Shown here: one piece after another, positions 19,638-22,788 of the stretch
Numbering within the stretch: the stretch's first letter is position 1
How the letters are laid out: each line of letters starts with the position of its first letter
DNA from: Thermoplasmata archaeon
GTDB lineage: Archaea; Thermoplasmatota; Thermoplasmata; Thermoplasmatales; Thermoplasmataceae
Direction: 5' to 3'
NCBI GenBank assembly: GCA_021816965.1
Contig: JAKAWU010000010.1
Coordinates: 1-32,866 of the forward strand
Length of the DNA stretch: 32,866 nt
Program-made: the position numbers and the translations under genes
Notes under the pieces: model-generated
The model's database searches: none
Seen by the model: only the letters and a program-made list of their open reading frames with translations
Told to the model about the DNA's origin: nothing

Positions 19638-20102
19638 TCACTCAATTTTGCAGCTGAGGATCTTAACATCTGTTACAGGCCTGTCGTTTCTGCTTGTCTG
19701 GACTTTACCTATCTTTTCCACTGTTTCCATACCTTCAACCACTTTCCCGAAGACGGGGTGTTTTCCGTCCAGATAGAGATTGTCAACAAGATTTATGAAA
19801 AACTGACTTCCACCTGTGTTTGGTCCTGCATTGGCCATGGAAATTGTTCCCTTCTTGTTGTGATTGTCCTTTGAGAACTCATCTTTGATTGTGTACCCGG
19901 GGCCCCCTGTTCCATTTCCTTTTGGGTCTCCACCCTGAATCATAAAACCACCAATGACTCTGTGAAATATTGTGCCATTATAGAATCCTTTTTCTGCAAG
20001 TTTTATGAAATTGCCTGCGGTTATAGGCATGTTCTTGTCGTCCAGCTCAATGACAAACTTTCCCATGTTGGTTTCCATATGTGCTTTCTTCATTTTAATC
20101 AC
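19638..20102 (-). CDS. Cyclophilin-type peptidyl-prolyl cis-trans isomerase
   Basis: 154 aa; [47 protein letters not shown]. Confidence 0.96.
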
Positions 20103-20148
20103 ATGTGATTCCTTACTCGGTTATGATTTCTTCTAAACATGTTGACTT

Positions 20149-20532
20149 TTATCTTTGGAAGTTAATATTCTTTCTTGATAATACTTTGCAGATATGCACC
20201 ACCATCCCCTCTATCCCAATGTGGTTGAGTTCAGGTATTGCCTTTTTGTTATGTTATATGCATTATTTAGGCCAGCATGTATGAATGTTCCATCTGAAGA
20301 TTGAAATGTGCCTCTTTAGCTATTTTCCAAAGTATGTATTTTGGTGTTCTCTGGTTTCATTACCGGGAAAACAACCTTTATTTTTTTAATGGTTCTGATT
20401 CCCATGAATATATTCGGATGCTCATTCCATGTCCTCATTTCTCTCAAGAACCAGTTCCAAGATTGCATAACTTACCTGATTGTCCACGGTGCTATCTCTG
20501 ATATAGATCTGTTCAGTTTTGTTAACTTTCAT
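20149..20532 (-). pseudogene. tnpB: Decayed, frameshifted and internally deleted IS605 OrfB/TnpB-like pseudogene
   Basis: My reverse-strand translation gives three collinear fragments in different frames: MKVNKTEQIYIRDSTVDN (from 20532), FLREMRTWNEHPNIFMGIRTIKKIKVVFP (about 20450-20364) and SDGTFIHAGLNNAYNITKR followed after a frame change by IPELNHIGIEGMVVHICKVLSRKNIN (20297-20149). They resemble TnpB N-terminus, the 'KEHPEKFxGRPxxPKYK' region and the 'IHADLNGAYNIxRK' C-terminus. Confidence 0.7.
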
Positions 20533-20622
20533 ACCCAGCCTTTCGCCAGTAGTTTGTTGTCTCTGAATTGAAATATAATCTTAACACAGAAAACTAAAAT
20601 ATACTATAGGGGATATACACCA

Positions 20623-22788
20623 ATGAGCGATTTGGAGAATGAAGATATATTAATCTCAGGTTTTGATCCTTCACAGATCAGGACTGCCTGGGAACACTTT
20701 TTTCAGAAATATGGTTATTTCAATGTTATAACAGAGATGAGTTCCCATTACCCTGAAGTGAGAAGCCTGTATGTCTCCTATGAGGACATAGACGAATTCA
20801 GTTCGGACTTTTCCCTTTACCTCATCCAGAATGCAGAAGAAACCATAGATTGGGGGGTGAGCGTGATCCGTGATTATATCTCCACACCAAACATGTCAAT
20901 AGGTGGGAAAAACAAGAATTCCATCATCGTAAATATAAGAATTATAGACCTTCCTGAGAACATCAAGATTGATATACGAAATCTGAGAAGTATCAATGTG
21001 GGCAGGCTCCTCAGCATAACTGGAATTGTTAGAAAAACTGCTGAAGTGGCCCCAAGGCTCTACAATGCTGCTTTTATGTGCTCATTCTGTGGATATGTTT
21101 CATTTGTCCTTCAGCAGAAGGGTAGGGTTGAAATGCCTGAAAGATGCGAGAATAATGAGTGCGGTGCATTGGAAAAAAACAAGCCCAGATTCACACTCAG
21201 ACTTGAAGAATCCAAATTTATAGATACGCAGAAAATAGAGATTCAGGAGGAACCAGAGAATATCAATGGTGGTGCCCAGCCCCTTCGTCTTACTGCAATC
21301 ATTGAAGATGATATTGCAGGAAAGATATTCCCCGGAGACAGGGTCACTCTTGACGGAATTATCAAGGCTGAGCAGAAGATGCTTGCAGGAAACCTTCTAA
21401 CGGAGTTCTCCACACACCTGTATGTCCTGAATATAAGAAAGGCCACAAAGGAGGTGGATGATGTCGTCATTACGCCCGATGAAGAGAAAGAAATTCTTGA
21501 TATGGCCAAGGATCCTAAAATTCTGGACAAACTTGCAGGTTCCATCGCACCGACTATATTTGGGCTTGAAAACATAAAAAAGACACTTGCACTGCAGATG
21601 TTTGGCGGTGTGAGAAAGACCATGAAAGATGGCACGACCATCAGGGGTGATATTCACATAATGATGGTTGGTGATCCAGGTACCGCAAAATCACAACTTC
21701 TAAGGTACATGTCCGAAGTGTCTCCGAGAGGCATACTTGCAATCGGTAAGGGCTCAAGTGCTGCTGGACTCACAGCTGCTGCTGTAAGGGATGATTTTGG
21801 TGAAGGGAGATGGACCCTTGAGGCAGGGGCACTTGTTCTTGCTGACAATGGATTCGTAGCCATTGATGAGCTTGATAAAATGGATGTGAAGGATACTGCA
21901 GCCATGCATGAGGCAATGGAGCAACAGACAGTAACAATTTCAAAAGCAGGAATCATAGCAACGCTCAAGTCCAGATGCTCTGTTCTTGCTGCAGCTAATC
22001 CCGATAAGGGGAGGTATGATGAATCATCAGAATTAATGGAACAGGTCAAGTTCCCTGCACCACTTATATCGAGATTTGATGTCATTTTCAAGATGATTGA
22101 CAGACCGGATGAAAAGAGGGACTCAGATCTTGCAACACATGTCCTGAATGCGCACAGGCTTGGGGAAATATATAGGAGTTATGAATTGAAGAATGAGGAA
22201 GAACCGGTCCTTACTGAGGAGGAGAAGGTTTATGAGCCACCATTCTCAAAGGAGATGCTGAGGAAATATGTTACCTATTCCAAAAGCCATGTTATTCCGA
22301 AGCTCACTCCGGATGCCATTGAGTATCTCAGGGAAGAGTATGTCAGGACAAGAAATCCTCCGGGAAGAAAAATAGATGGGCGACCTTCTGTTCCAATCAC
22401 TGCAAGGCAGCTTGAGTCGACCATCAGGCTTGCAGAGGCTTCTGCCAGGGCAAGACTCTCGACTGCTGTAAGCCTTGACGATGCCATAATCGCGAAAACT
22501 ATTGTGGATTCTTTCCTGAAGGAACTTTCATCTGATAAGAATGGATATGATATCGATATACTTGAAACTGGAATAAGTGCTGCCAGAAGAACCAGCATTG
22601 ATGAATTGCTCTACATCATAAGAGACCTGAAGGCCATGAAAAAAGGTGCTGCTCCTTTGGAAAAAGATGTGGTTGAGGAAGCTGTTACAAGAGGGATGAA
22701 AAAGGAGGACGCAGAAAAAACCATAAGAATGGCAATCTCATCCACTATACTGTACAGGCCCATGGATAAATGCATAGACGAGGTGTGA
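20623..22788 (+). CDS. mcm: Replicative DNA helicase MCM
   Basis: 721 aa; CSFCG..CENNECG zinc site, GDPGTAKSQLLRY, GKGSSAAGLTAAAVRD, AIDELDKM, LISRFDVIF. No intein seen. Confidence 0.97.
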   Translation: MSDLENEDILISGFDPSQIRTAWEHFFQKYGYFNVITEMSSHYPEVRSLYVSYEDIDEFSSDFSLYLIQNAEETIDWGVSVIRDYISTPNMSIGGKNKNSIIVNIRIIDLPENIKIDIRNLRSINVGRLLSITGIVRKTAEVAPRLYNAAFMCSFCGYVSFVLQQKGRVEMPERCENNECGALEKNKPRFTLRLEESKFIDTQKIEIQEEPENINGGAQPLRLTAIIEDDIAGKIFPGDRVTLDGIIKAEQKMLAGNLLTEFSTHLYVLNIRKATKEVDDVVITPDEEKEILDMAKDPKILDKLAGSIAPTIFGLENIKKTLALQMFGGVRKTMKDGTTIRGDIHIMMVGDPGTAKSQLLRYMSEVSPRGILAIGKGSSAAGLTAAAVRDDFGEGRWTLEAGALVLADNGFVAIDELDKMDVKDTAAMHEAMEQQTVTISKAGIIATLKSRCSVLAAANPDKGRYDESSELMEQVKFPAPLISRFDVIFKMIDRPDEKRDSDLATHVLNAHRLGEIYRSYELKNEEEPVLTEEEKVYEPPFSKEMLRKYVTYSKSHVIPKLTPDAIEYLREEYVRTRNPPGRKIDGRPSVPITARQLESTIRLAEASARARLSTAVSLDDAIIAKTIVDSFLKELSSDKNGYDIDILETGISAARRTSIDELLYIIRDLKAMKKGAAPLEKDVVEEAVTRGMKKEDAEKTIRMAISSTILYRPMDKCIDEV

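What the first reader, a model, noticed from the sequence alone, without database searches (positions are those of the whole stretch)
20149..20532. Decayed tnpB fossil between cyclophilin and mcm, missed by ORF calling
Reverse-strand translation shows three collinear fragments in shifting frames (MKVNKTEQIYIR...; REMRTWNEHPNIFMGIRTIKKIK; SDGTFIHAGLNNAYNITKR / IPELNHIGIEGMVVH) that match the order of an IS605-family OrfB/TnpB. Total length is about 380 bp against roughly 1.1-1.3 kb for an intact gene, so large internal deletions are implied. The two 66-76 aa plus-strand ORFs listed here are then antisense artefacts. It also places an old insertion directly upstream of the replicative helicase gene.
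Basis: partly seen in the sequence, partly recalled or inferred. Interest (0 to 1): 0.6.

Follow-up and report, generated by a model that had tools for sequence, protein, structure and literature searches.

The report
Decayed IS607-type transposon relic (tnpB)
Between a protein-folding gene and the DNA-replication helicase gene of an uncultured archaeon lies the broken remainder of a common jumping gene; it is ordinary dead DNA, except that its end lies so close to the folding gene that this gene's on-switch probably sits inside it.

Summary
Window 20541-20119 (- strand) is a decayed tnpB. A gap-tolerant alignment to a profile of 12 relatives scores 276, against 59 +/- 6.7 for shuffled sequence; whole-genome DNA matches reach E = 4e-23. 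Two internal deletions (about 180 and 690 nt), in-frame stops and frameshifts remove two-thirds of the gene. The right end is complete and stops exactly at 20119.

The family name needs correcting. The complete relatives are IS607 elements: an IS607 serine transposase (NF033518, 163 bits) overlaps the tnpB start, so this is not IS605. The relic has lost that gene and the left end.

Neither product can work. The RuvC-I and RuvC-II stretches are deleted, the RuvC-III Asp is Gly, and 11 of 36 predicted RNA pairs at the right end are broken, against 0-3 in intact copies. Decay is spread over all codon positions. No other copy carries these deletions.

The mcm promoter block is intact. The relic ends 25 bp before the cyclophilin ATG, so the cyclophilin promoter probably now lies in relic DNA (inferred). 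An ordinary pseudogene.

The parts
20498..20541 (-). relic block 1: last 9 nt upstream of the tnpB ATG (end of tnpA) plus tnpB codons 1-12 (ATG at 20532)
   Evidence: 77% identity to intact-element consensus, profile alignment
20399..20497 (-). relic block 2: tnpB codons about 73-105, shifted frame, one in-frame TAA; preceded by a deletion of about 182 nt
   Evidence: 72% identity, profile alignment; tblastn residues 72-103
20371..20398 (-). junction stretch of 28 nt at the second large deletion (about 690 nt), origin not assignable
   Evidence: aligned only in short ambiguous pieces
20119..20370 (-). relic block 3: 3' part of tnpB (RuvC-III with Asp to Gly) and complete IS right end ...GAAATCATAACC
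   Evidence: mostly 62-88% identity in sub-blocks; right end stops exactly where intact copies end
20586..20622 (+). host mcm promoter/leader block, conserved in relatives G008 and G004, not disturbed by the relic
   Evidence: sequences of orthologous loci
19638..20102 (-). cyclophilin-type peptidyl-prolyl isomerase (start GTG 20102 or ATG 20093); its upstream DNA from 20119 on is IS-derived
   Evidence: Pfam PF00160; distance read from the sequence
20623..22788 (+). mcm replicative helicase
   Evidence: Pfam MCM

Best explanation
An IS607-family insertion sequence (serine transposase tnpA plus RNA-guided nuclease tnpB) inserted just upstream of the cyclophilin gene, in the divergent cyclophilin-mcm spacer, and then died. 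Deletion removed the left end and almost all of tnpA; two more deletions removed about 180 and 690 nt of tnpB; point mutations and frameshifts followed. What remains is non-functional: no transposase, no nuclease active site and a broken guide-RNA scaffold. The similarity, the deletions and the loss of the active site are shown. The order of events is inferred. The most likely present-day effect, also inferred, is only that the cyclophilin promoter now lies within relic DNA.
For: Profile alignment score 276 against null 59 +/- 6.7. Collinear tblastn fragments. DNA matches in 23 of 117 genomes of the order, best E 4e-23 (the count includes the window's own genome). The right end stops at the same point as in 16 other copies. 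The tnpA that overlaps tnpB in complete relatives is an IS607 transposase: NF033518 163 bits, PF00239. The relic keeps ATGAAAGTTAA, in which the tnpA stop overlaps the tnpB start, as in G034. Excess mismatches over intact copies fall on all three codon positions, and 28 of 319 bases occur in no intact copy. 11 of 36 RNA pairs are broken against 0-3. The closest relative G008 has a spacer of about 149 nt without a recognisable element.
Against: No left end remains, so the insertion site cannot be tested for the IS607 GG target rule. The G008 spacer may hold a tiny further-decayed remnant (p about 0.02), so whether it is a true empty site is open. The tail of tnpA upstream of 20541 is not distinguishable from host DNA.
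Confidence: 0.93

Rival explanations
1. The relic is a non-autonomous, internally deleted IS derivative (MITE-like) that could be mobilised by a transposase elsewhere.
For: It keeps the 5' start of tnpB and a complete right end while losing the middle. G034 carries copies with a deleted tnpA, so deletion derivatives arise in this family.
Against: No second copy in its own genome. No genome in the order shows the same deletion junctions; hits are always pieces, and where both ends are found they lie most of a kilobase apart. The left end is missing. No IS607 TnpA in the own assembly, which is 85.5% complete.
Confidence: 0.03
2. The remnant now has a role: its right end supplies the promoter or leader of cyclophilin.
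For: Only 25 bp lie between the IS end (20119) and the cyclophilin ATG (20093), the neighbouring gene is divergent, and cyclophilin is intact and 93-94% identical in G008. Transcription must therefore start from relic DNA or far upstream with a leader of more than 400 nt.
Against: No promoter mapped; a home-made motif search did not recover a TATA signal and is uninformative. The relic shows no sign of constraint. It may merely house the promoter by default.
Confidence: 0.3
3. IS200/IS605-family tnpB.
For: Pfam PF01385 is named OrfB_IS605 and matches the intact relative, but that model covers TnpB of both families.
Against: The gene that overlaps the tnpB start in complete relatives is an IS607 serine transposase, not a Y1 transposase.
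Confidence: 0.03

Closest known systems
IS607-family insertion sequences in related archaea of the same order (copies in G034, G023, G103, G068, G074)
   Same: Same tnpB, same right end, same tnpA-tnpB overlap; mostly 70-77% DNA identity in the longer retained blocks
   Different: The relic has lost the left end, nearly all of tnpA and about two-thirds of tnpB, and carries stops and frameshifts
IS200/IS605-family elements (TnpB of the ISDra2 type)
   Same: TnpB is homologous across both families (PF01385, NF040570)
   Different: The transposase of the relatives is a serine recombinase; the position where RuvC-II Glu is usual holds Gly, with a Glu near the zinc-finger Cys instead
Fanzor-like TnpBs with repositioned RuvC-II Glu (Ealt), described in PMC10711439
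   Same: Intact relatives show Gly at the canonical position and a nearly invariant Glu just before the zinc-finger Cys
   Different: Most have D-[IVM]-G rather than DPG in RuvC-I; only one copy (G115) reads DPG; the relic itself has lost this part

Membership tests
IS607 family insertion sequence | serine recombinase TnpA | tested here: inconclusive
   Met in complete relatives (NF033518, PF00239); in the relic itself the gene is deleted, so assignment is through its relatives
IS607 family insertion sequence | tnpB follows and overlaps tnpA | tested here: met
   ATGAAAGTTAA overlap kept in the relic as in G034
IS607 family insertion sequence | right-end sequence of this IS607 group | tested here: met
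   ...AGAAATCATAACC stops at 20119, aligned to 16 copies
IS607 family insertion sequence | no target duplication, insertion at GG (PMC6188088) | tested here: inconclusive
   Left junction lost; G008 spacer too diverged
IS200/IS605 family | Y1 (HUH) tyrosine transposase as partner | tested here: not met
   The partner gene in complete relatives is a serine recombinase; no separate Y1 model search was run
active TnpB RNA-guided nuclease | RuvC active site | tested here: not met
   RuvC-I and RuvC-II stretches deleted; HADLN reads HAGLN in the relic
active TnpB RNA-guided nuclease | folded guide-RNA scaffold at the right end | tested here: not met
   11 of 36 consensus pairs broken, against 0-3 in intact copies; the consensus structure itself is a prediction with little covariation

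The most novel reading that the evidence does not exclude
The right end of a dead IS607 element has replaced the promoter of an archaeal cyclophilin gene, so that a housekeeping gene is now driven from transposon DNA, possibly from sequences that once drove the element's own guide RNA.
Probability: 0.3. Interest if true: 0.3.

Novelty: new member of a known kind. Interest (0 to 1): 0.14.

Why it matters
Little beyond annotation. It corrects the family (IS607, not IS605), explains away two spurious ORFs, and shows a lineage in which one relic is all that was found of an element still present in related genera. If transcript mapping put the cyclophilin promoter inside the relic, it would be a neat case of transposon DNA rewiring a housekeeping gene in an archaeon.

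Tried and rejected
Left end and target-site analysis: no left end is present in the relic. G008 as a further-decayed carrier of the relic: profile alignment not significant (37.5 against null 31.7 +/- 4.5), pairwise test marginal (p 0.02); left open. Promoter motif search by EM on 59 upstream regions gave a meaningless motif and was discarded. Rfam: no guide-RNA family matched the relic or three intact copies. A mobile deletion derivative: no copies with the same junctions. G004 could not serve as an empty site, because mcm has a different neighbour there.

Full report
What is there. The window is contig C20 of a 1.36 Mb, 85.5% complete archaeal assembly whose nearest mcm relatives are Thermoplasmata MAGs, one of them (69% identical) labelled Cuniculiplasma. 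The spacer between cyclophilin (PF00160) and mcm is 520 bp.

Is it tnpB? DNA search finds matches at 66-71% identity, best E 3e-18 among 40 relatives and 4e-23 over 117 genomes of the order. The best-preserved relatives encode an intact 417-aa protein (P0001) that matches PF01385, PF07282 and the NCBIfam RNA-guided TnpB subfamily NF040570 at 203 bits. tblastn of that protein hits the relic in collinear pieces, about residues 1-11, 72-103 and 358-384. A gap-tolerant alignment to a profile of 12 relatives scores 276 bits against 59.4 +/- 6.7 (maximum 82.5) for 200 dinucleotide shuffles.

Extent and damage. Element-derived DNA runs from 20541 down to 20119. Block 1 (20541-20498) holds the last bases before the tnpB ATG and codons 1-12. 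A deletion of about 182 nt follows, then block 2 (20497-20399). A second deletion of about 690 nt follows, with 28 nt of unassignable junction, then block 3 (20370-20119) to the element's right end. The right end GAAATCATAACC stops at 20119, at the same point as in 16 other copies, after which flanks diverge. Stops occur in-frame in blocks 2 and 3, and frames shift between and within blocks. The RuvC-I and RuvC-II stretches (residues 191 and 284 of the intact protein) lie in the second deletion, and the RuvC-III motif HADLN reads HAGLN. The predicted right-end RNA fold has 11 of 36 pairs broken, against 0-3 in intact copies. That fold is a prediction with almost no covariation support.

Which family. 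In the complete relatives the gene directly upstream, overlapping the tnpB start, is a serine recombinase: NF033518 IS607 transposase, 163 bits against a cut-off of 110, and the reading frame appears to extend further upstream. The relic retains the overlap ATGAAAGTTAA, where TAA ends tnpA. IS607 elements lack inverted repeats and target duplications and insert at GG (PMC6188088). The relic cannot test these, since its left end is gone.

Age and relatives. G008 is the closest relative (mcm 94% identical; four-fold-site distance 0.43 over nine genes). Its spacer is only about 149 nt with no recognisable element, apart from a marginal similarity (p 0.02) that could be a last trace. The relic carries bases seen in none of the 12 aligned copies at 28 of 319 retained coding positions, evenly over codon positions, which fits neutral decay of roughly a tenth of sites. 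That is less than the roughly 0.2 expected per lineage since the G008 split, so inactivation after the split is likely but not proven. The own assembly has no other copy, no IS607 transposase, and otherwise only distantly related tnpB genes (28-37% identity). Strong matches to the intact protein are found in 23 of 117 genomes of the order, in several of them in multiple copies, so the element spreads in the group.

Effect on neighbours. The block upstream of mcm (20586-20622) is conserved in G008 and in G004, where the rest of the upstream region is unrelated; the insertion did not touch it. On the other side the element ends 25 bp before the cyclophilin ATG (16 bp before the GTG). Since the next gene is divergent, the cyclophilin promoter most likely lies in relic DNA. 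This is inference; no promoter was mapped, and a motif search failed.

Verdict. An ordinary transposon relic, correctly spotted by eye, with the family corrected to IS607. Interest is low.

Noticed in passing
L211 (G115:C46), L079, L080, L201-L208 and other intact tnpB copies: This archaeal IS607 TnpB group has Gly where the canonical RuvC-II Glu is expected and a nearly invariant Glu just before the zinc-finger Cys, like the repositioned site of Fanzors. One copy (G115) also reads DPG in RuvC-I; PMC10711439 reports DPG plus repositioned Glu (pro-Fanzors) only from cyanobacteria. A single copy could be a chance substitution.
   Followed up: partly
L083 and L045 (G034:C20): Two copies with intact or contig-cut tnpB carry only a short stub of tnpA behind a shared upstream sequence, so tnpA-less deletion derivatives appear to spread in G034.
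   Followed up: no
L228, L229, L230 (G070, G077, G011): A sub-group of the same TnpB has LLDKSWK instead of IGHNNGWK at the RuvC-II position while keeping the Glu before the zinc-finger Cys.
   Followed up: no
L091, L092, L093, L094, L096 (elsewhere in G000): Five other tnpB-like genes with open frames of 357-417 aa in the same genome, only 28-37% identical to this family in the matched parts.
   Followed up: no
L027 (G004:C76) 1790-1880: In G004 cyclophilin is not next to mcm; a tRNA-like sequence lies upstream of mcm instead, so the neighbourhood was rearranged in that lineage.
   Followed up: partly
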